Program-made: the position numbers and the translations under genes
Shown here: positions 13,778-53,291 of the stretch, piece after piece
Numbering within the stretch: position 1 is the stretch's first letter
Layout of the letters: each line of letters begins with the position of its first letter
Virus record (IMG/VR): IMGVR_UViG_3300035698_014122
Span: 1-53,546 of that record
Origin: a virus
Direction: 5' to 3' (one strand)
DNA: 53,546 bases
The notes under the pieces: model-generated
What the model was told of the DNA's origin: nothing
The model's database searches: none
Seen by the model: the letters and a program-made list of their open reading frames with translations, nothing else

Positions 13778-13806
13778 ATTATAACCTATTATTCTTTTAT
13801 TGTCAA
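13778..13806 (-). promoter_or_regulatory. Early-type sigma-70 promoter for the SLOG gene
   Basis: On the minus strand, TTGACA at 13806-13801, 17-nt spacer, TATAAT at 13783-13778. Close copy of the shared early promoter. Confidence 0.85.
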
Positions 13807-13815
13807 GAGTTAAAA

Positions 13816-13826
13816 GTAAAGGTAAT
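13816..13826 (+). promoter_or_regulatory. GTAAAGRTAAT motif (candidate late promoter)
   Basis: GTAAAGGTAAT lies 32 nt before the HD hydrolase start, back to back with the minus-strand early promoter. Confidence 0.5.
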
Positions 13827-13847
13827 AAACATACAGGAGATTTTTTC

Positions 13848-14414
13848 ATGAAACTTAAAGATGCACTTGACGCTTCGAGAGGCGAGAGACAAATAAAGAA
13901 AGCAGATAAATATGCCACAAAACAACACGAAGGTCAAACAAGAAAAGGCAACGGAGAGCCTTATGTAAATCACCCTAAACGAGTTGCCGCTATAATAAGA
14001 AAATATAAAGATTCAAAAGAAATTTATAAAATAATTCAAGCTTCATTACTACATGATACAAGGGAAGATACTTCAACTACAGAGAAAGACTTAAAGAGAA
14101 AGTTTGGAAAATTAGTTGCATCATTAGTTGGAGAGTTAACCAGCGATAAAGAAGAGATGGCAAAACAAGGCGGTAAGAGACTTTACTTGGCAAACAAAAC
14201 ACAGAAGATGTCAAGTTGGGCATTAGTAATTAAGTTAGCTGATAGGTTAGATAATGTATCAGACTTTAGTAAAATGTCTGATGAGTTTGTTAAAAACTAT
14301 ACTAAACAAACGAATTATATTCTTGATGAATTAGAAAAGAAAAGAAAACTTTCTGGAACGCAGAAGGCTTTAATTAGAGACATTAGAAAAAGTATGATAA
14401 ACTTTAAGAAATAA
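13848..14414 (+). CDS. HD-domain (p)ppGpp hydrolase-like protein (MESH1/SpoT type)
   Basis: 188 aa from the ATG at 13848, chosen for its ACAGGAG ribosome site. Family blocks: YATKQHEGQTRKGNGEPYVNHPKRVA, ASLLHDTREDT (the HD pair) and KLADRLDNV. These match the Mn-dependent hydrolase of RelA/SpoT homologues and small alarmone hydrolases; no synthetase domain is present. It could lower host alarmone during infection. The N-terminus MKLKDALDASRGE resembles the head-targeting leaders, so the enzyme may be injected. Confidence 0.82.
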   Translation: MKLKDALDASRGERQIKKADKYATKQHEGQTRKGNGEPYVNHPKRVAAIIRKYKDSKEIYKIIQASLLHDTREDTSTTEKDLKRKFGKLVASLVGELTSDKEEMAKQGGKRLYLANKTQKMSSWALVIKLADRLDNVSDFSKMSDEFVKNYTKQTNYILDELEKKRKLSGTQKALIRDIRKSMINFKK

Positions 14415-16743: not shown

Positions 16744-19700
16744 TTGGCACTTTCCAGAGAAGAGGCGAAGTTCGTAAACTCGATAAAGAATAAAATAAAA
16801 ACATATAATATCAGAACAACAATAAAAGAAGCTGTTGGTTATAGTGCTGACTATTTGGTTAATACTATTTATAATTCAGATAGTATAGAATTAGTAGATA
16901 TGGGAATTGAAATGTTTCTTATTAAGAAGTCATTCTCTTATTTCTTAAGCCAATATGGTAGAGTAGATATTCCAGGATTAGGAACTATTAAAATGGAACC
17001 ATATTACTTTCAAGCAGAAGTCTCAAAAGAAATAATGGATTATAGAAAAGTGGTTCTTGATAAAACAAGACAGTGCTTAACAGAAGAAAATTTTGTTATG
17101 ACAGATCGTGGATATATATCCATTAAAGACGTAAAGCCTGGTGATATGATTGAAACTATTATTAATGGAAAATCATCTTTTACGTTAGTAGAGAATTTCT
17201 ATAATCAAGGAAAGAAAAAAATATGTAGAATTTTAACTAATTCTGGAGCTGATATTAAATGCACTTTAGACCATAAAATAATGACAAAAGAAGGGTGGAA
17301 AGAAGCTGGAGATTTATCATTAAATGATGAAATAACGTCATTAATAAATAAAGGGACTTTTGGAAACTACAGATTAGAAGATGATAAACATGTTGCTTTA
17401 ATAGGATACTATTTAGCAGATGGAAGAGCTTCTCAGCCAAGTTTTGTAAATACTAATTTAACTTATATTAATGAAGTTTTAGAAGCCGGAGAAACATTTA
17501 AGAATTGTGAACCTTATATATATAAAAGACCAGAAGATAAAACAAGAAAACAAGGTTATGATGTTAGACTTGTATCTAAATCAAAAGGTAAAATGTATAG
17601 ACCTATATTAGATTTTATGAAAGAACATAACTTAAGTAAAAAATCTAATGACAGAATATTAACAAAAAACTTAATGAATTTAAATAAACATCAAATGTCT
17701 ATACTATTAAATAGATTGTTTGCTGGAGATGGATACATTACATACCAAAAAGACAAAAGAAGACCTAACTATATTCAATATGAAATAGGATTAGGTGCGC
17801 CTAATTTTACATTGGTCAAGCAATTAGAATATATATTACAAACTAAATATGGAATACACTGTTGGATAGACGAACAGTTTGATAAGAGATTTACTCAAAG
17901 ATTTTGGAAAATAAGAATAACTCAAAAAAAATCAGTAATTAAATTTGTAAATGAAATAGGAATAAAAGATAAAACAGATACAAAAGAGATGATTGATTTA
18001 ATCTCTAAAGAAAAGCCATACAATACAAACCAATCATTTGAGAAGATAAGAAAAATAGAGAAGAAGAATAAGAAAGAATTAGTGTATGATATAACAACTT
18101 TTACAAATGATTTTTTAACTAATGGGTTGTTAGTTCATAATTGCGGCATTTCTACTATCTTTGCTTTATATAGCTTTTGGAGAGCTCACTTCTTTACCGC
18201 TGAATCAATTGATGTAGTTTCAATTAAACAAAAGAAAGCACAACAATTCGTTAAGAAAATAAGTTCTACTATGTTGAGTTTACCTGAATGGATGAGAACT
18301 CCTATAAAATATCAGAACCAACAAGAAATCACTTTTGATCACGGTGCATCAACTTCAACTATATTATCAGAATCACAATCAGAAAATGCTGGTCGTGGTG
18401 ATTCTTTATCAGTATTGATTTTAGATGAAGTTGCCCATTATCAATCAGAAAAAATGGTTAGAGGAATTATAGCATCTGCGCGACCAACCCTAGACAAAAC
18501 TGGTGGACAGATCGTATTGATCTCTACACCTAATGGTGTGTCGGGTAAAGGCGCTTATTATTACGAACAAGTAGTTAATGCAAGAAGTGGAATTAAAGAC
18601 ACAAAGTATCTTGAGATTGATTGGTGGGAAGTTCCTGATGATCCTCGTATATCTGGTGCAAAGAAAGGATATAATGATATTCTTGAGAAAGCTATTAAAG
18701 AAGGATACTATTATAATTTAAACATTAAAAAGAAATATAAGGATTATTTTGATCCAATTGCAAGAAATAACTTTTTAGATAATGAATGGTTAAAATCATC
18801 TCATGATGATCTTAATGCTGCTGGATATAGACAAGAAGTTTTACATGATTTTATTATTGGTGGAGACAAAGTATTCTCGGAAGAGATACTTAAAAATGTT
18901 GAAGATAGGTGTAAAGAACCAATCCTTAAAGATATCTTAGGAACTTCTGAGTATGAAGGATTTTGGACATGGAAGAAACCTATTCCTGGTCATAGATACA
19001 TTCTTGGTGCTGATATTTCAACAGGAACAGGTAATGACTATTCATCATTAGAAATAATGGATGTTGCAGATGACGAACAAGTTGCAGAATATAAAGGACA
19101 TATGTCTACTCCAAACTTTGCCAGATTTTTAAAGAAGGTTGCAAATTATTATAATGAAGCCTTCGTAGTAATAGAATCTAACAGCATCGGAGAAGCTGTG
19201 TTTAATGCAGTATATTATTCTGAAGTAGATCCTTATCAAAATGTATATAAACAAAAGAAAACAAAAAATGGTGTAACCAGAATGACTGGTTGGGTAACAG
19301 ATGTTAAAACGAGAAAGCTTCTAACGAATGATTTCATAGATTGGATTTCTGTTCCTGAGTTATTTGACAGTATAAAGATTTACAGTAAAAGATTATGGAT
19401 GGAATTAACTACTTGGATTTGGGCTGGCGGAAATAAACCAGATCATAGCGGAGGATGTGTTTCTGAAAATACAATAATTACTTGTGAAGATGGATTTAAA
19501 GAAATAAAAGACATAAAGATTGGAGATAAAGTATTAACTCATACTGGGGATTTTAAAAAAGTTTACAATACTTTTAAGTTTAAAGATGAAAGTAAGAAAA
19601 TGTTAGAGGTAAAATCTTGGGGATGCGAAAGAATAAATATAACTTCAAACCAAGAATTTTATTTAAATGAAGGAGAGTTTAAAAATTTTGATGATATTTA

Positions 19701-20781
19701 TGATTATAGAAATATAAAATCTAATTCTACATATAGTAGAAAAGTTAAACCTTGTGAGTTAAATAAAGATGAATTATTTTTATTTTTTATAGGACATGTT
19801 TTATCAGATGGAACAATTTCTAAAAAAAATAATATTACTATAACAAGCGAAAATAAAGAAAGTATTATAATCTTTGAAAAATATTACAATTATTTTAAAG
19901 ATAAAGTTGAAAATTTATATATCTCTGAATATCCAAAAGAACAATTTAGAAGATTTACGATTAAAGATAAATCACTATGGAATACTCTAAATGAAATTGG
20001 AGTCTCAAAAGATAAAAATATTCCATTAAGTTTAAGATATATAGAGCCAAATTTACAAAAAAATATTTTATATGGATACTTATTTGGAGATGCTTGCTTT
20101 ACGCCAAGCAAAACAGGAAAAATAACAGCTAATTCTATATCATATAATTTATCATATTTTATATCATCTATTTTATTTAGAAATAATATATCTTTTAACT
20201 TAAATAAACAATACCCAAAAAGATATGGAGAAGATACAAATCCTCAGTGGAGTATTTCTATATTAGGAAAAGAATGCTTAAAGATATTCGAAAATAATTT
20301 TAAAGACATTTTTAGTTTAAAAAATAATTATAAACAAACTTATAGCTTTATTAACTCTAAAAAACAGAAAAAAACTTCAAAGTTAAGAAATTATAATAAT
20401 GATTTTTTACAAAGTAGTATAAGCTCAGTTAAAAGAGTTAAATGGAATGATTATTATTATGATATTTCTGTAGAAGAAGACCATTCTTATGTTGCAAATG
20501 GATATACAGTTCATAATTCGCACGATGATAGTATCATCGCTTTCTCATTAGCCATTTATAACAAGAGCAAAGCAGTTATGTCTGGTGATTCATTCCTCAT
20601 AACTGATGATGGTGAAGTTGTAGCTATGGATAGTAAAGATAATACTGATGAAGTTAAAGCAAGTAATACTATTGAAGAATTTGACATCATTGAATCTGGA
20701 ACAGTTGATCCAGATGAGTTTCAGGATCGTTATGGTTGTTCGAAAGAAGAATATGATTGGTTGATAGGAAGTATAAATTGA
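16744..20781 (+). CDS. 17: Terminase large subunit (gp17-like) with two inteins
   Basis: 1345 aa precursor from a TTG behind AAGGATTAAC; about 635 aa after removal of both inteins, near the usual gp17 length. ATPase: the P-loop DKTRQ/CGISTIFALYSFW is interrupted by intein 1, and Walker B is LSVLILDEVAHY. Nuclease: ILGADISTGTGNDYSSLEIMD carries the first Asp, FVVIESNSIG the Glu, and SHDDSIIAF the last Asp pair, interrupted just before by intein 2. It powers DNA packaging and cuts concatemers at the portal. The stop overlaps the next TTG start. Confidence 0.92.
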   Translation: MALSREEAKFVNSIKNKIKTYNIRTTIKEAVGYSADYLVNTIYNSDSIELVDMGIEMFLIKKSFSYFLSQYGRVDIPGLGTIKMEPYYFQAEVSKEIMDYRKVVLDKTRQCLTEENFVMTDRGYISIKDVKPGDMIETIINGKSSFTLVENFYNQGKKKICRILTNSGADIKCTLDHKIMTKEGWKEAGDLSLNDEITSLINKGTFGNYRLEDDKHVALIGYYLADGRASQPSFVNTNLTYINEVLEAGETFKNCEPYIYKRPEDKTRKQGYDVRLVSKSKGKMYRPILDFMKEHNLSKKSNDRILTKNLMNLNKHQMSILLNRLFAGDGYITYQKDKRRPNYIQYEIGLGAPNFTLVKQLEYILQTKYGIHCWIDEQFDKRFTQRFWKIRITQKKSVIKFVNEIGIKDKTDTKEMIDLISKEKPYNTNQSFEKIRKIEKKNKKELVYDITTFTNDFLTNGLLVHNCGISTIFALYSFWRAHFFTAESIDVVSIKQKKAQQFVKKISSTMLSLPEWMRTPIKYQNQQEITFDHGASTSTILSESQSENAGRGDSLSVLILDEVAHYQSEKMVRGIIASARPTLDKTGGQIVLISTPNGVSGKGAYYYEQVVNARSGIKDTKYLEIDWWEVPDDPRISGAKKGYNDILEKAIKEGYYYNLNIKKKYKDYFDPIARNNFLDNEWLKSSHDDLNAAGYRQEVLHDFIIGGDKVFSEEILKNVEDRCKEPILKDILGTSEYEGFWTWKKPIPGHRYILGADISTGTGNDYSSLEIMDVADDEQVAEYKGHMSTPNFARFLKKVANYYNEAFVVIESNSIGEAVFNAVYYSEVDPYQNVYKQKKTKNGVTRMTGWVTDVKTRKLLTNDFIDWISVPELFDSIKIYSKRLWMELTTWIWAGGNKPDHSGGCVSENTIITCEDGFKEIKDIKIGDKVLTHTGDFKKVYNTFKFKDESKKMLEVKSWGCERINITSNQEFYLNEGEFKNFDDIYDYRNIKSNSTYSRKVKPCELNKDELFLFFIGHVLSDGTISKKNNITITSENKESIIIFEKYYNYFKDKVENLYISEYPKEQFRRFTIKDKSLWNTLNEIGVSKDKNIPLSLRYIEPNLQKNILYGYLFGDACFTPSKTGKITANSISYNLSYFISSILFRNNISFNLNKQYPKRYGEDTNPQWSISILGKECLKIFENNFKDIFSLKNNYKQTYSFINSKKQKKTSKLRNYNNDFLQSSISSVKRVKWNDYYYDISVEEDHSYVANGYTVHNSHDDSIIAFSLAIYNKSKAVMSGDSFLITDDGEVVAMDSKDNTDEVKASNTIEEFDIIESGTVDPDEFQDRYGCSKEEYDWLIGSIN
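17074..18141 (+). mobile_element. Intein 1 with LAGLIDADG endonuclease, in the terminase P-loop
   Basis: Residues 111-466 (356 aa). Block A CLTEENFVMTDRGYISIKDV with Cys1; block B CTLDHKIMT; LAGLIDADG motifs LIGYYLADGR and LNRLFAGDGYI; C-terminal block LTNGLLVHN followed by Cys+1. Splicing restores TRQCGISTI. The endonuclease domain appears intact. Confidence 0.93.
19456..20517 (+). mobile_element. Intein 2 with LAGLIDADG endonuclease, in the terminase nuclease motif
   Basis: Residues 905-1258 (354 aa). Block A CVSENTIITCEDGFKEIKDI; LAGLIDADG-type motifs FFIGHVLSDGTI and LYGYLFGDACF; C-terminal VEEDHSYVANGYTVHN followed by Ser+1. Block B reads INITSNQEFYL, with Gln where a His is usual. Splicing restores GG-SHDDSIIAF, the metal-binding nuclease motif. 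Confidence 0.9.
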
Positions 20782-33025: not shown

Positions 33026-33218
33026 TTTTTTCCCTTGCTTTTGCTTTTCCTGCCATAAACCCTACAGCAAATCCGGTTGCATACACTATAGTATCATCAC
33101 TACTTCTTGTATTTGTAACCATTGTTGCAAATCTCATGCTATTGAAGAAGTTGTCACTATCGTCACTATAAAATGATTTATTATACGCTTCTTCCATTTC
33201 TTTTTCTTCTTCACTCAT
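33018..33218 (-). CDS. Hypothetical small protein
   Basis: 66 aa. Acidic N-terminus and one weakly hydrophobic Gly-rich segment (TIVYATGFAVGFMAGKAKA). Overlaps both neighbours by a few bases, consistent with an operon. Unknown. Confidence 0.5.
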   Translation of the reverse strand: MSEEEKEMEEAYNKSFYSDDSDNFFNSMRFATMVTNTRSSDDTIVYATGFAVGFMAGKAKAREKND

Positions 33219-34831
33219 TTGTATATAACCTTCTTTATACCTGCTGGTATGTTATCTCCGCTTCTTGTTAAGAACATCAAACTCTTTTTATCTTCTTTGT
33301 AAAACCCGAGACTTTCATCATCTAAATTAGTATAAAAATATCCATCAGTAACAAATAATAAAAATGGTAATTGCTTTTTATTTGGAATAAAAATGCTTTC
33401 TTTATCATTAAGGATTAAAATCATACTTCCATTCTTTTCTTCGGTTTTGCTTTCTAAAAAATGAAACACACTTCTTGGATTAGTTCCACCACCTCCGGAA
33501 AGTCTAAAGTGTTTCCAATCACCCGGCTTATATTCTTTTATCTGTGAAGATGTTACACTCCAATCCCACATCATTGTATAAACTTTTCCTGATGAACTAA
33601 AGCTCATTTCTTTTGCTATTTCATCAATTTCAGTAAAGAACCTTTCTTTATCATATTCATCATGAAAACAAGAACCAGAAGTATCAATTGCAATAATTAT
33701 ATAATTCTGTTTCTTTGTAGAAGTTCTCAATCTATGCTTTCCAATCATTCCATAACGGCTTCTTGGATTCAATAAATGAGTTATATAACTTTGTTTATAA
33801 CCTTTTACTGTTCCTCTGTCTGACATATAAATATTCAATCCCTGCTTAAATTCTTTTTTCCAATTAACTTGAGACTTTAATAATTGTCCTACAGCTTTAA
33901 TCAAAGAATTACCATCATTCATTCCAGCGGCCTTTTGTGCTGCCTGTAATGCTTTATTATTGTCCAGCATTTTTTCGGCTTGCTTTACGAGATTTTCAGT
34001 AAATGCTCTTTGCGGTATTAAGTTTTCGTATTCAGAATCTCCATCAATTTTTACTTCCATTATGTCTGGATCATTAAATCCGTGAGTTTCACATTCAAAG
34101 TCTTGTTCCATTCCTGTATTAAACGATTCTGAACTTCCCATCATTACGACAGGAGTTAAATCATCAACGTTTTCACTACAGTATTCACCTTCTTGTCTAT
34201 CACCATTAAAGTCTTTATATGCTTTTTCTAAAGTTGGAAACTTAACAATAGACAATTTGTTTTCATTCTCTGAATCAGTATATTCTGCTTTCCCGTATTC
34301 GCCCTTTTCATTTTTACAATATTCGTTCTTTAGTAAGAACTCTTTCTTATTGCTTTCTTTATTTTTCTTATACCAATTATATAATCTTGGAGTTGTATAA
34401 GCATCCTCTTTAAGACTTTTATATTCTCTTTTGAAATCTTCTGGAATTTCAATACCTTTGCCTTTAGTTGGCATTTTAGGTTGAACTCCAAGAAATTTCA
34501 TTTTAAGAATTTCAGTATTTATTATTGCATCTTCAGCAATATTCCTTAATTCATGATTTTTTAGATTATCATGAATACTTAAATGATGCTTGAAGATATG
34601 TTGTGCTTCATGAATTAATATGAAGTATAGCTCTTCTACAGGAAGAGTTATAAATCTATTAGTATAATGAAACTGAACTCTATTATTTAGATATCTAACC
34701 CCAGCAAAGTCATCTTTTTTTAAGTTAGTTTCATCAAGAATAAAATCCGAATTGATTATAAATAGATATATCAATGGTTCTTTATCTATAAGATAAAAAG
34801 ATAATTTAGATATTATCTCTGGTCTTGCCAT
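33215..34831 (-). CDS. VWA-domain zincin-like metallopeptidase (DUF2201-like)
   Basis: 538 aa. The N-terminal third has a zincin-type helix LIHEAQHIFKHH (HExxH read as HEAQH, with a following His) and a downstream NIAEDAIINTEI acidic helix. The C-terminal 190 residues are a VWA-like domain with MIDAS DTSGS (IIIAIDTSGSCFHDEY), then an SGGGGTNP loop. Such proteins are commonly paired with MoxR AAA ATPases; a MoxR-like gene lies about 1.8 kb upstream on the same strand. Together they likely form an ATP-driven remodelling or metal-insertion module. Transcribed from the early promoter at 34878-34850. Confidence 0.78.
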   Translation of the reverse strand: MARPEIISKLSFYLIDKEPLIYLFIINSDFILDETNLKKDDFAGVRYLNNRVQFHYTNRFITLPVEELYFILIHEAQHIFKHHLSIHDNLKNHELRNIAEDAIINTEILKMKFLGVQPKMPTKGKGIEIPEDFKREYKSLKEDAYTTPRLYNWYKKNKESNKKEFLLKNEYCKNEKGEYGKAEYTDSENENKLSIVKFPTLEKAYKDFNGDRQEGEYCSENVDDLTPVVMMGSSESFNTGMEQDFECETHGFNDPDIMEVKIDGDSEYENLIPQRAFTENLVKQAEKMLDNNKALQAAQKAAGMNDGNSLIKAVGQLLKSQVNWKKEFKQGLNIYMSDRGTVKGYKQSYITHLLNPRSRYGMIGKHRLRTSTKKQNYIIIAIDTSGSCFHDEYDKERFFTEIDEIAKEMSFSSSGKVYTMMWDWSVTSSQIKEYKPGDWKHFRLSGGGGTNPRSVFHFLESKTEEKNGSMILILNDKESIFIPNKKQLPFLLFVTDGYFYTNLDDESLGFYKEDKKSLMFLTRSGDNIPAGIKKVIYK

Positions 34832-36481: not shown

Positions 36482-36693
36482 TCATCCTCCATTTTTATAA
36501 ATGCAAGTGTTCCAACCGGAACAGTAGTAAAAAATATTACAAAAAGATACCAATATTCTTTCATATATGAGACTTGTAAATTTTTTATTTCAATGAAAGT
36601 ATCCCATCCTGTTATTAACATTAAAGTAAAAGCAGTTAAACATATAACAGCTAAAAGTATGAATGATATTATTAAAAATGTTTTTTTACTCAT
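36478..36693 (-). CDS. Small two-helix membrane protein
   Basis: 71 aa from the ATG at 36693 behind AAAGGA, overlapping the MoxR gene's stop. Hydrophobic segments at about 5-29 and 48-64, with a short charged tail. Function unknown; a superinfection or membrane-active early protein is possible. Confidence 0.6.
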   Translation of the reverse strand: MSKKTFLIISFILLAVICLTAFTLMLITGWDTFIEIKNLQVSYMKEYWYLFVIFFTTVPVGTLAFIKMEDE

Positions 36694-39169
36694 TGTTTGT
36701 TTTTTCCTTTTGTAATCCAAATAATTCTTGGTCACTTGTGTAATAATATCCTTGATAAGAATTTTTATATCTATCGTTAATACTGTATAACAACTCTCCT
36801 AATTCTTCAGCGGGCTTCGTTTTTATATTATTAAGTTCGTAGATAAATACAGTTAAATCCTCTGCAGGAATATTTGTATCTGTCATGAACGTTGAAAGAT
36901 TTAATGCTGGCATTTTTACTCCAGCGTCTCCGTCCCATTTGTCAACTTCTGCAACTGAGTGAGCTACAGACAGAAGAAGGTATAGCATAGCTCCTTTTTT
37001 CTCAGATAGCTTTTTGATTTTATCACGAACATTAACGTAATCAAAAAGAACATCTTCTGGCAAAACTCTATTCTCTGCGAAATACGCATATTTTCCAATG
37101 ATGTCTTGAACTACTTGAACTCCATTTGTTATTCCAAATTCGTTAATGTTATTAATCAAAGCTTTAATCTGAACATTTGGGTCTTGATAAAATTTACTGA
37201 AATTTGCATATTTTTCTTTTGAAAGTTTGTCTTTATTCCACCAATTAATCATATCAAAAATCATATTATTTGCAACAAGAGTCCAAGCTCTTGGGGACAT
37301 AGTTGAGTCACCTTCTTCATCATCGTTATTGTTTTTAGGAATTAAGAATGGTGATTCTACTCTCCCATCTTCCATAAATTTATCGAAGATGTAATAACAC
37401 AATATAGAAGGTATTCTGGTTGGAAGTTTAATTCTATTAAATTCAAACGTTCTAAATGCAAATGAGTTTAACCAGCTTGGAGCGTTATATCCGATACTAA
37501 TGTTTCTGTGCCATCTTTCTGCTGTAGCAGTATCAAGATTGTTTACAGAGTTAAAGGATGAAACGTTTTTCTGAACTTTTCTATTACCAGAACCAATAAT
37601 AACTGTTCTCTTTGGAAGAGTATACTTCTCAGATTTTCCTGTTTCTTCGTTAAAGTCAGCACTACCGCCAATCTCTCCTGTAAGAATTAAATTCATTACA
37701 GCAGCCATTGATTCAGTATCAGCTTTGTTAAATTCATCTAAGTGAAGAATCCAAACTCTATCATCATCCGTTGGAGGAAGAACTGTTGGCTGAGCAAGTT
37801 TTACTACTGTCTTTCCTTCTGGTGTTTTATGCAGAAACGGAAATCCTTGTAGCTCTTCAATAGGAACTTTTTGAATTTCAAGTTTATGATAAATACAATC
37901 AGGATTTTCTTCAGCTATCTGTTTAATAATTTCTGTATTGTGAGTTACTGTAAAATCTCCTAGTACAAAAAGTTTATCTTCACCGCTTATTTCAAATCCA
38001 TAATAAGTATTTACTCCTGTACTTCTTACTTTTATTCCTGTTTTAAGAACGTCCTTTATTTGTTTTCTTTTATTAGCCTTTTTCCTATTAATTCTTGTAG
38101 GAATAATAGAGCAATCTCCTGATATATATATTCTATAATATGTCCCCTTATGACCTTTATAAGCTGATTTTATACATTTCTTTTTATATGCAGCCAATCC
38201 CAGTGATCTTACTAAGAATATAATGTCATCAATTAAATTTTCTTTTTTTTGTATTAGATCAAACCCTTTTTTGTTGTCACAGCTTCCATCAGTATCTATT
38301 AATCCAGCTAAAAGTTGTAATCTTTTTTCTCTTGAATTTATTTTATATTCTTGCGGAATATGCTTATTGTTTATTAAATTAAGCTTTTTAAACTCTTCCT
38401 TAATAGGATTAGAAATTCCTCTTTTTCCAGTAATAGCATACGAGCTGACCCTATTTTCACTTTTATACTCGCTAACTGATAAACCATCAAAGGTTCCAGC
38501 ATATTCTCTTAAATAGTTTATAACTTCTTTGTCAATATTTGTTATTGATGGGTCTCCGTTACTTCTTCCGTCACCTAACCATAATCCTAAAAAATATGGA
38601 TCGAGAGCAGTATCTTGCTCTCTCCAGTCTATACTTGTTCTGTACCCTTTTGCATAATTCTTAAAAGTTTTATTTTTTTTCAAATAATCTTCAACAGAAA
38701 TGTTTACAATTTTATTGTTTTCCTTTCCAGACATATTTAAGGATAAAATATGAGAACGATTTACATTATATGCTTCTCCTTTAGTAGGAATTATGTCAAA
38801 CATTTCTTCTGTACCAGAAGTGACTGACTTTATAATTCTTTCATTAGAATCTGGGCCTATAATCTTATCTCCTACTTCAATGTCTTCTGCGGTTTTTAAC
38901 GTTCCATCAAACATTAAAACCTTAGTCCCTTTAGCTAAACACTTACCAGTACCAGTTTCGCCATGAATAAAAAGTGAATGTTTGGTTCCATCAATGAACA
39001 TGTTATTTCTTGTTAAATCAATAGCTCTTCTGATTTCTGTTTTGAGTTCATCATATCCAGAAGCTTCTGTCGGAATTGTATTTGCGATTCCCTTTTCGAT
39101 TGTAGCAATGTTAAAATTACTACTTACAGACTTTTGTAATTCAAAGTATAGCTTTGAATATTCTTTCAT
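36686..39169 (-). CDS. MoxR-family AAA+ ATPase with an intein in the P-loop
   Basis: 827 aa precursor; 492 aa once the intein is removed. Walker A is LFIHGETGTGK/T, split by the intein before Thr; Walker B is WILHLDEFNKA, sensor 1 VIIGSGNR, with a MoxR-like helical lid (SPRAWTLVANN). MoxR ATPases act with VWA partners to remodel or mature protein complexes; the VWA metallopeptidase lies downstream in the same direction. The gene is in the early block and overlaps the next small membrane gene. Confidence 0.85.
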   Translation of the reverse strand: MKEYSKLYFELQKSVSSNFNIATIEKGIANTIPTEASGYDELKTEIRRAIDLTRNNMFIDGTKHSLFIHGETGTGKCLAKGTKVLMFDGTLKTAEDIEVGDKIIGPDSNERIIKSVTSGTEEMFDIIPTKGEAYNVNRSHILSLNMSGKENNKIVNISVEDYLKKNKTFKNYAKGYRTSIDWREQDTALDPYFLGLWLGDGRSNGDPSITNIDKEVINYLREYAGTFDGLSVSEYKSENRVSSYAITGKRGISNPIKEEFKKLNLINNKHIPQEYKINSREKRLQLLAGLIDTDGSCDNKKGFDLIQKKENLIDDIIFLVRSLGLAAYKKKCIKSAYKGHKGTYYRIYISGDCSIIPTRINRKKANKRKQIKDVLKTGIKVRSTGVNTYYGFEISGEDKLFVLGDFTVTHNTEIIKQIAEENPDCIYHKLEIQKVPIEELQGFPFLHKTPEGKTVVKLAQPTVLPPTDDDRVWILHLDEFNKADTESMAAVMNLILTGEIGGSADFNEETGKSEKYTLPKRTVIIGSGNRKVQKNVSSFNSVNNLDTATAERWHRNISIGYNAPSWLNSFAFRTFEFNRIKLPTRIPSILCYYIFDKFMEDGRVESPFLIPKNNNDDEEGDSTMSPRAWTLVANNMIFDMINWWNKDKLSKEKYANFSKFYQDPNVQIKALINNINEFGITNGVQVVQDIIGKYAYFAENRVLPEDVLFDYVNVRDKIKKLSEKKGAMLYLLLSVAHSVAEVDKWDGDAGVKMPALNLSTFMTDTNIPAEDLTVFIYELNNIKTKPAEELGELLYSINDRYKNSYQGYYYTSDQELFGLQKEKTNNE
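37937..38941 (-). mobile_element. Intein 3 with LAGLIDADG endonuclease, in the MoxR P-loop
   Basis: Residues 77-411 (335 aa). Block A CLAKGTKVLMFDGTLKTAED with Cys1; block B VNRSHILSL; LAGLIDADG motifs FLGLWLGDGR and LLAGLIDTDGS; C-terminal FVLGDFTVTHN followed by Thr+1. Splicing restores GETGTGKT. Confidence 0.94.
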
Positions 39170-52457: not shown

Positions 52458-52478
52458 TACTTTTCCTTATTTTCATAT

Positions 52479-52549
52479 CGGGCCATGTAGGAATTGAACC
52501 CACATCAAAAGGGTTGGAATCTCTTATGCTACCGTTACACCAATGACCC
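52479..52549 (-). tRNA. tRNA, Trp (CCA) or Gly (TCC)
   Basis: 71 nt. Acceptor GGGTCAT/ATGGCCC, D-arm with AACGGTA, T-arm GTGGG-TTCAATT-CCTAC. The loop can be framed as TTCCAAC (CCA, Trp) or ATTCCAA (TCC, Gly), each with one stem mismatch. The D-stem and the G discriminator favour Trp. CCA is not encoded. Confidence 0.8.
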
Positions 52550-52555
52550 ATATTT

Positions 52556-52663
52556 TTATACTTTTTTTTCTTTTTTCCCTTTATAAAAAACTATTAAAGC
52601 GTGTGATACAAACCCTAAAGTTACCGACAATGTAATTATAATTAGTAATAATCCAAACGGCAT
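52556..52663 (-). CDS. Very small membrane protein, 35 aa
   Basis: MPFGLLLIIITLSVTLGFVS, then HALIVFYKGKKEKKV: one membrane helix with a strongly basic end. GAAGGAGA ribosome site one codon after the previous gene's stop. Unknown. Confidence 0.6.
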   Translation of the reverse strand: MPFGLLLIIITLSVTLGFVSHALIVFYKGKKEKKV

Positions 52664-52664
52664 T

Positions 52665-52769
52665 TTATTCTCCTTCTCGACCTTCGTGCGAAACAACTAA
52701 TAAAGCACATGCCATAAATCCTACAGCTCCACTTAATCCCATTAAACAGAAAGCTAACCACAATGCCAT
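52665..52769 (-). CDS. Very small membrane protein, 34 aa
   Basis: MALWLAFCLMGLSGAVGFMA, then CALLVVSHEGREGE: one membrane helix with an acidic end. AAGGAG ribosome site. It pairs with the next small membrane gene in the tRNA operon. Confidence 0.6.
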   Translation of the reverse strand: MALWLAFCLMGLSGAVGFMACALLVVSHEGREGE

Positions 52770-52789
52770 AAATACTCCTTATAAAATAT

Positions 52790-52869
52790 ACCAAAGAAGG
52801 GAATCGAACCCTTAAACCTTTCGATACTAGTTCTTAAAACTAGCGCGTTTACCGTTTCGCCACTCTGGC
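52790..52869 (-). tRNA. tRNA-Leu (TAA)
   Basis: 80 nt class II tRNA. Acceptor GCCAGAG/CTTTGGT, anticodon stem CTAGT/ACTAG with loop TTTAAGA (anticodon TAA), long variable arm, T-arm AAGGG-TTCGATT-CCCTT, discriminator A. Confidence 0.9.
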
Positions 52870-52877
52870 TTGAAAAT

Positions 52878-52958
52878 TACCAATGAAGGGATTCGAACCC
52901 ATACACCTCTCGGCACTAGTTTCTAAAACTAGCATGTCTACCGTTCCAACACATTGGC
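52878..52958 (-). tRNA. tRNA-Leu (TAG)
   Basis: 81 nt class II tRNA. Acceptor GCCAATG/CATTGGT, anticodon stem CTAGT/ACTAG with loop TTTAGAA (anticodon TAG), long variable arm, T-loop TTCGAAT. Confidence 0.9.
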
Positions 52959-52962
52959 ATGA

Positions 52963-53104
52963 AGAAGATTTAATCCCTGTTTTTGCTTCGAATAACCAGA
53001 GCTACACGCATTGCTTGACTAGCAGCTTGACGTATAATTTCATCACAAAATTATACCGCTTTAGTCCAAGGTGGATGCTTTCAGACCTTTACCAACTATC
53101 TTCT
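52963..53104 (-). ncRNA. tRNA-like structured RNA in the tRNA operon, permuted Y-RNA candidate
   Basis: 142 nt on the tRNA strand, 4 nt from the next tRNA. Ends pair as AGAAGAT/ATCTTCT like an acceptor stem; TTGGTAAAGGT resembles a D-loop, and TTCGAA sits in a T-arm-like hairpin (CTCTG/CAGGG). In place of an anticodon arm is a long helix: GCAT/ATGC, then CTTG(G)ACTA paired with TAGTCAAG with one bulged base, capped by GTATAATTT/AAATTATAC around a 7-nt loop. The bulged CUUGACU-type helix resembles the Ro60-binding site of Y RNAs, and bacterial YrlA RNAs combine such a site with a tRNA-like domain. I find no usable anticodon. The identification is tentative. Confidence 0.45.
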
Positions 53105-53171
53105 GAATAAATTTTACGTTAGTTTAGGGAGCTACAAAAAAATATTCATAAACGATCACTCCAATTTTATA

Positions 53172-53261
53172 TACGGATGGTGGGAATCGAACCCACGATG
53201 TTTACCTCTCGGGTATGAGGTTTTAAGCCTCATGCGTTTTAACCAGCTTCGCCACATCCGC
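53172..53261 (-). tRNA. tRNA-Leu (TAA), second copy
   Basis: 90 nt class II tRNA. Acceptor GCGGATG/CATCCGT, anticodon stem TGAGG/CCTCA with loop CTTAAAA (anticodon TAA), long variable arm, T-arm GTGGG-TTCGATT-CCCAC. First gene after the promoter. Confidence 0.92.
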
Positions 53262-53291
53262 AAATCTTAACCTACCACTCAGCCATACATA

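What the first reader, a model, noticed from the sequence alone, without database searches (positions are those of the whole stretch)
17074..20517. Two inteins in one terminase, one per catalytic centre
Intein 1 splits the ATPase P-loop (TRQ/CGIST) and intein 2 splits the nuclease HDD motif. Packaging therefore needs two splicing events, each restoring a different active site. Double inteins in gp17 are uncommon in my knowledge and would couple late packaging to splicing efficiency.
Basis: seen in the sequence. Interest (0 to 1): 0.7.

Follow-up and report, generated by a model that had tools for sequence, protein, structure and literature searches.

The report
Two inteins in a phage terminase
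The DNA-packaging motor gene of an uncultured tailed phage carries two self-removing protein inserts, one in the ATP site and one beside a nuclease catalytic residue; this arrangement has been seen before, but the gene belongs to a group that collects up to four such inserts, and one insert type lacks a histidine that inteins almost always need.

Summary
Confirmed. ORF 16744-20781 is a T4-gp17-like large terminase with two in-frame class 1-type LAGLIDADG inteins, at exactly the stated coordinates: 17074-18141 inside a deviant Walker A (KTRQ|CGIST) and 19456-20517 just before nuclease motif III (GG|SHDDS). Both pass Pfam cut-offs and keep their reading frames across saturated synonymous divergence. 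A double-intein terminase, one insert per domain, is already published (Microcystis phage Mic1; also two inteins in a crAss-like phage), so the rarity claim is overstated. Nine relatives show the wider picture: the terminase of this clade is a four-site homing target (Walker A, ATPase C-motif, nuclease motif I Asp, nuclease motif III), with 0 to 4 inteins per gene and patchy occupancy. This fits selfish homing better than a conserved packaging switch. Splicing and homing are inferred, not shown. A moderately interesting new variant of a known kind.

The parts
16744..20781 (+). terL, 1345-codon precursor of the large terminase (TTG start; a relative, L003, has ATG at the same codon)
   Evidence: phrog_5989 and phrog_38 terminase large subunit; T4 gp17 structures 3ezk/3cpe, E 2e-14 and 2e-13
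16744..17073 (+). N-extein, ending in KTRQ of the deviant Walker A
17074..18141 (+). Intein 1 (site 1, Walker A), 356 aa; Cys1, block B TLDH, LAGLIDADG motifs GYYLADG and LFAGDG, C-terminal HN, Cys+1
18142..19455 (+). Middle extein: rest of Walker A, Walker B LILDEVAH (18415), C-motif ISTPNG (empty site 3), nuclease GADIS (19006, empty site 4), nuclease Glu VIES (19168)
19456..20517 (+). Intein 2 (site 2, nuclease motif III), 354 aa; Cys1, block B TSNQ (Gln for His), HVLSDG and LFGDAC, C-terminal HN, Ser+1
19642..19653 (+). Block B T-S-N-Q of intein 2; the last codon is Gln where inteins have His
   Evidence: position; profile alignment: His67 of intein 1 opposite Gln66 of intein 2
20518..20778 (+). 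C-extein starting SHDDS, the nuclease motif III
37937..38941 (-). Third intein of the record (335 aa), in the P-loop GETGTGK|C...HN|T of a MoxR-like AAA ATPase; same kind of event, different gene

Best explanation
The gene encodes a T4-gp17-like large terminase invaded by two independent class 1-type inteins carrying LAGLIDADG homing endonucleases. After translation each intein should excise itself (Cys1 acyl shift, transfer to Cys+1 or Ser+1, Asn cyclisation) and rejoin the exteins, restoring KTRQCGIST in the ATPase and GGSHDDS in the nuclease. The inteins are mobile parasites: their endonucleases cut intein-free terminase alleles in co-infected cells and repair copies the intein in. Target sites sit in motifs that can hardly change, so the same four sites are hit repeatedly in this phage clade. 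The nuclease-site intein lineage has replaced the block B His by Gln and must activate its N-terminal junction some other way, perhaps with the Gln amide. Shown: anatomy, homology, constraint, site occupancy. Inferred: splicing, homing, the role of Gln.
For: Profile matches over cut-off for splicing and LAGLIDADG domains in both inserts. Intein-free relatives align cleanly across each site: site 1 in L004, L005, L008, L024, LR756508 and KVP40; site 2 in L003, L006, L008, L020, L024, LR756508 and KVP40. Constraint like the host gene: dN/dS 0.12-0.16 for intein 1 (three pairs) and 0.135 for intein 2 (one pair), versus 0.13 and 0.085 for the window-L003 and window-L004 middle exteins; dS is above 1, so ratios are rough. 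Endonuclease catalytic Asp residues retained. Occupancy in 10 terminases of the clade: site 1 4 of 8 readable; C-motif 4 of 10; nuclease motif I 2 of 10; nuclease motif III 5 of 10. Inteins without the LAGLIDADG motifs at site 1 (L009) and site 2 (L005, L007, L009) look like endonuclease loss. At nuclease motif I both occupied alleles have Cys+1 while all 8 empty ones have Ala, Val or Ile, as if inteins bring their own +1 residue. Five mycobacteriophage TerL inteins splice and two cut intein-free alleles in experiment (PMC5050341, passages).
Against: No splicing or cleavage was measured. Intein 2 lacks the block B His, loss of which is usually inactivating (PMC7765530, passages). AlphaFold models of both inteins were poor (mean pLDDT 40.4 and 43.1), so there is no structural test of the active sites. 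The second endonuclease motif of intein 2 is GDA rather than GDG, so its homing may be weakening.
Confidence: 0.9

Rival explanations
1. The inteins are kept as regulators: slow or condition-dependent splicing delays assembly of active terminase, so packaging waits for a signal.
For: Both sites should abolish a catalytic centre until spliced. Mic1's authors proposed its inteins as biosensors controlling packaging (PMC7156551, passages). A His-less intein 2 might be slow.
Against: Patchy occupancy: L003 and L004, 76% and 79% identical to the window's middle extein, each lack one of the two inteins, and L008 shows none at any of the four sites. Gains and losses without a fixed set argue against a conserved switch.
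Confidence: 0.1
2. Intein 2 is splicing-defective, so the window carries a dead or dying terminase allele.
For: Gln replaces the block B His. The Arthrobacter FB24 DnaB intein, which lacks this His, is a pseudogene (PMC7765530, passages).
Against: Gln is present in 5 of 5 site-2 inteins whose middle exteins are as little as about 56% identical, including three that lost the endonuclease motifs. The frame is intact and dN/dS is 0.135 against L004. A dead intein here would kill an essential gene.
Confidence: 0.07
3. The inserts are assembly chimeras or misjoined contigs.
For: Metagenomic record (a virus record of IMG/VR type); L007 begins exactly at the site 1 +1 codon and L020 begins inside a site 3 intein, so assemblies do break at inteins.
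Against: Both inserts are in frame, uninterrupted, and recur at the same codon in independent contigs (L003, L006, L009 for site 1; L004, L005, L007, L009 for site 2).
Confidence: 0.01

Closest known systems
Microcystis phage Mic1 TerL, two inteins (MN013189; PMC7156551)
   Same: One intein in the ATPase domain and one in the nuclease domain of TerL; by eye the nuclease one lies at motif III (DHL|C...SN|CDAL).
   Different: Its ATPase intein is at the C-motif (LTG|C...HN|TPKG), not Walker A; both its inteins have block B His; only the large one carries an endonuclease according to the paper.
crAss-like phage OBYQ01000140 TerL with two inteins (PMC7886860)
   Same: Two inteins in one TerL (passages).
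   Different: Recoded TAG stops; described as Hint-Hop type; its sequence was not examined here.
Mycobacteriophage TerL inteins TerL1-a to -e, TerL6-f (PMC5050341)
   Same: Inteins at Walker A and C-motif; five shown to splice, two shown to cut intein-free alleles.
   Different: All seven reported sites are in the ATPase domain, none in the nuclease; their classic P-loop site is between Lys and Thr, ours RQ|xGxS.
Haloarchaeal MCM inteins, four sites in one gene (PMC10643990)
   Same: Several insertion sites in one gene; double inteins mostly thought to arise by invading single-intein alleles (abstract and summary).
   Different: Archaeal helicase; homing shown by experiment there, only inferred here.
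Tko CDC21-1 intein group lacking the block B His (PMC7765530, PMC6333167)
   Same: Natural inteins without the block B His.
   Different: Those use a Lys and have a bulky Leu at -1 (passages); ours have Gln and Gly or Asn at -1.

Membership tests
Class 1 intein | Nucleophilic residue at position 1 (Cys, Ser or Thr) | tested here: met
   Cys1 in both inserts
Class 1 intein | Block B Thr and His | tested here: not met
   Met in intein 1 (TLDH). Intein 2 has TSNQ: Thr kept, His replaced by Gln. Intein 2 is therefore called class 1-type (by Cys1 and junctions) with this departure stated, not a full member.
Class 1 intein | Terminal His-Asn and Cys/Ser/Thr at +1 | tested here: met
   VHN|C and VHN|S
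Class 1 intein | Protein splicing occurs | not testable with these tools
   Needs expression
LAGLIDADG homing endonuclease (intein-borne) | Two LAGLIDADG motifs with catalytic Asp | tested here: met
   GYYLADG/LFAGDG and HVLSDG/LFGDAC; LAGLIDADG_3 above cut-off in both
LAGLIDADG homing endonuclease (intein-borne) | Cuts the intein-free allele | not testable with these tools
   Needs a cleavage assay
T4 gp17-like large terminase | Sequence match to gp17 with Walker A, Walker B, C-motif, nuclease D, E, D | tested here: met
   3ezk/3cpe matches; all motifs align with KVP40 gp17. Walker A is the deviant form without GKT. The match to Terminase_6C is below its cut-off.
CDC21-1-type compensated intein | Bulky residue at -1 accompanying loss of block B His | tested here: not met
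   -1 is Gly, Gly, Gly, Asn, Asn in the window, L004, L005, L007, L009

The most novel reading that the evidence does not exclude
The nuclease motif III inteins form a lineage that splices natively with a block B Gln and a small -1 residue: a catalytic solution distinct from the Lys (CDC21-1) and bulky -1 routes. It sits in a terminase that can carry four inteins at once (L009), one at each of four catalytic elements, so a working motor needs four correct splicing events.
Probability: 0.6. Interest if true: 0.62.

Novelty: new variant of a known kind. Interest (0 to 1): 0.46.

Why it matters
It gives a compact natural system for two open questions. First, how an intein does its first step without the residue called the most conserved in inteins: the five site-2 inteins are a ready series to test. 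Second, how several homing elements share one essential gene: here one gene shows 0, 1, 2 and 4 inteins in relatives. The double terminase intein alone would matter little, because Mic1 already shows it.

Tried and rejected
Structure prediction of both inteins (alignments A2, A3) gave mean pLDDT 40.4 and 43.1; no fold search was made on such models and nothing rests on them. A search of bacterial and archaeal genome contigs with the middle extein alignment found no relative (594 stretches matched a pattern, none confirmed), so no host was inferred. Intein 1 as a query found only two viral loci, both already known terminases. The site-2 alignment brought 18 loci: four are known terminases of the clade and 14 are more distant inteins or Hint-like proteins; those 14 were left out of the clade counts. 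L025, L026 and L027 (21-30% identity) were also left out. Considered and rejected: class 3 intein (Cys1 is present), split inteins (one uninterrupted frame), chance open frame. A mosaic origin of intein 1 is suggested: its N-terminal splicing part shares more sites with L009 than L006's does (15 to 3, p 0.0075) or L003's does (19 to 4, p 0.0026), while the middle-extein controls give 21 to 18 and 33 to 24. These p values are uncorrected and only about 90 codons are involved, so it is kept as a hint. A tree of exteins resolves little (1 of 7 inner branches starred; the site-2 label needs 2 changes, 64 of 500 shuffles as low), so shared descent versus repeated gain of site 2 is open.

Full report
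What is there. The plus-strand frame 16744-20781 is open for 1345 codons. It matches terminase large subunit families and the T4 gp17 structures 3ezk and 3cpe at E 2e-14 and 2e-13. Two stretches interrupt it: aa 111-466 (17074-18141) and aa 905-1258 (19456-20517), leaving 635 aa of extein. Searched alone, each exceeds Pfam's cut-offs for the intein splicing domain and for LAGLIDADG_3. Both start with Cys and end with His-Asn; the next residue is Cys for the first and Ser for the second. Neither would stay open by chance (0 of 20000 simulations each).

Where they sit. Aligned with KVP40 gp17 and with the intein-free terminase of LR756508, insertion 1 falls in Walker A after RQ and before xGxS/T; insertion 2 falls directly before the residue that precedes HDD or NDD, the nuclease motif III. 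The window's Walker A is the deviant kind with no GKT lysine. That the Lys two residues before RQ may serve instead is recalled from work on lambda terminase, not tested.

Relatives. Scans of viral contigs gave nine other terminases of the same clade (L003, L004, L005, L006, L007, L008 = L022, L009, L020, L024). Their occupancy, read, shows four sites. Site 1, Walker A: 4 of 8 readable (window, L003, L006, L009; L007 and L020 cannot be read there). Site 3, the C-motif IS|TPNG: 4 of 10 (L006, L009, L020 in part, L024). Site 4, with one residue between it and the first nuclease Asp: 2 of 10 (L009, L024). Site 2, nuclease motif III: 5 of 10 (window, L004, L005, L007, L009). L009 holds all four in one 1842-codon frame. 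L008 shows none, though its frame is broken just after the C-motif. So the window, with two, is an ordinary member of an intein-rich clade.

Mobility. Inteins at one site are relatives: intein 1 is 76% identical to L006's and 70% to L003's; intein 2 is 73% identical to L004's. Between sites of one gene they are only distantly alike (22% for the window's two). dN/dS is 0.12-0.16 for intein 1 and 0.135 for intein 2, close to the exteins, with saturated dS. The inteins are poorer in G+C than the middle extein (26% and 22% versus 33%). L009 at site 1 and L005, L007, L009 at site 2 lack the LAGLIDADG motifs. At site 4 the +1 residue is Cys in 2 of 2 occupied and Ala, Val or Ile in 8 of 8 empty alleles, as expected if an intein brings its own +1 codon. 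This is the picture of homing followed by decay; homing itself was not tested.

The missing histidine. In profile alignment, His67 of intein 1 stands opposite Gln66 of intein 2. All 5 site-2 inteins have Gln there; the 13 other inteins whose block B I listed (sites 1, 3, 4, the L006 portal intein, the window's third intein, two of Mic1) have His (these 18 were picked by eye from the loci in hand and are not independent). A review calls the residue highly conserved and names two exceptions, a pseudogene and Tko CDC21-1, which uses a Lys (PMC7765530, passages). Friedel and co-workers show that bulk at -1 can compensate, and note Leu at -1 in the CDC21-1 group (PMC6333167, passages). Site-2 inteins have Gly or Asn at -1. 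Since Gln is shared by diverged and endonuclease-less copies in an essential gene, I infer that they splice. The means is open; a hydrogen bond from the Gln amide at the scissile bond is my guess.

Known or new. Mic1 (PMC7156551, passages; sequence) and a crAss-like phage (PMC7886860, passages) already have two TerL inteins, in Mic1 one per domain. Mycobacteriophage TerL inteins were all in the ATPase domain (PMC5050341, one section and passages). I saw no report of three or four inteins in one terminase, or of a Gln block B intein, in the listings of searches of an open-access library, or in the passages opened; that is a limited statement.

Verdict. Observation confirmed; interpretation partly supported. 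Two splicing events are very likely needed, but the arrangement has precedent, and patchy occupancy favours parasitic homing over a packaging switch. The His-less site-2 lineage and the four-site clade raise it above routine.

Noticed in passing
window 37937-38941 (-), in ORF 36686-39169: A third intein, in the P-loop GETGTGK|C...HN|T of a MoxR-like AAA ATPase. It is 47-49% identical to inteins in the P-loop of helicase-like proteins of Klebsiella phage JD001 (annotated 'terminase large subunit' or 'putative helicase') and Vibrio phage 1.009.O, so one intein family seems to have moved between P-loops of different ATPases.
   Followed up: partly
L009 2-5527: Four inteins in one terminase frame of 1842 codons: Walker A, C-motif, nuclease motif I, nuclease motif III.
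   Followed up: yes
L006 7169-8374: The portal gene of a relative also carries an intein (402 aa) with an HNH-like stretch in place of LAGLIDADG; the HNH reading is by eye.
   Followed up: no
window 17074-17343: The N-terminal splicing part of intein 1 shares more with L009 than the L003 and L006 copies do, although middle exteins are about equidistant; hints at a mosaic intein.
   Followed up: partly
L007 position 1; L020 position 1: One contig begins exactly at the +1 codon of site 1 and another inside a site 3 intein; assemblies may break where a population mixes intein-plus and intein-minus alleles.
   Followed up: no
L022 (L008) about 480-530: Frame break just after the C-motif of an otherwise intein-free terminase; sequencing error or damaged allele not distinguished.
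   Followed up: no
L044, L045, L046, L053, L054, L047, L012, L013: Other, distant terminase-like genes have inteins at Walker A (before SRGLSKS; HGK|S; GK|T) or at the C-motif (NS|TPYG); gene identities of L044-L047, L053 and L054 judged by eye.
   Followed up: partly
window 13800-14414 (+): HD-domain protein (Pfam HD_4, E 1.6e-15), possibly a (p)ppGpp-hydrolase-like enzyme (function recalled, not tested).
   Followed up: no
window 33215-34831 (-) and 36686-39169 (-): VWA-like DUF2201 protein (below Pfam cut-offs) near the MoxR-like ATPase, resembling MoxR-VWA pairs (resemblance recalled).
   Followed up: no
window 52478-53262 (-): Four tRNA genes, one Trp and three Leu (two with anticodon taa).
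   Followed up: no
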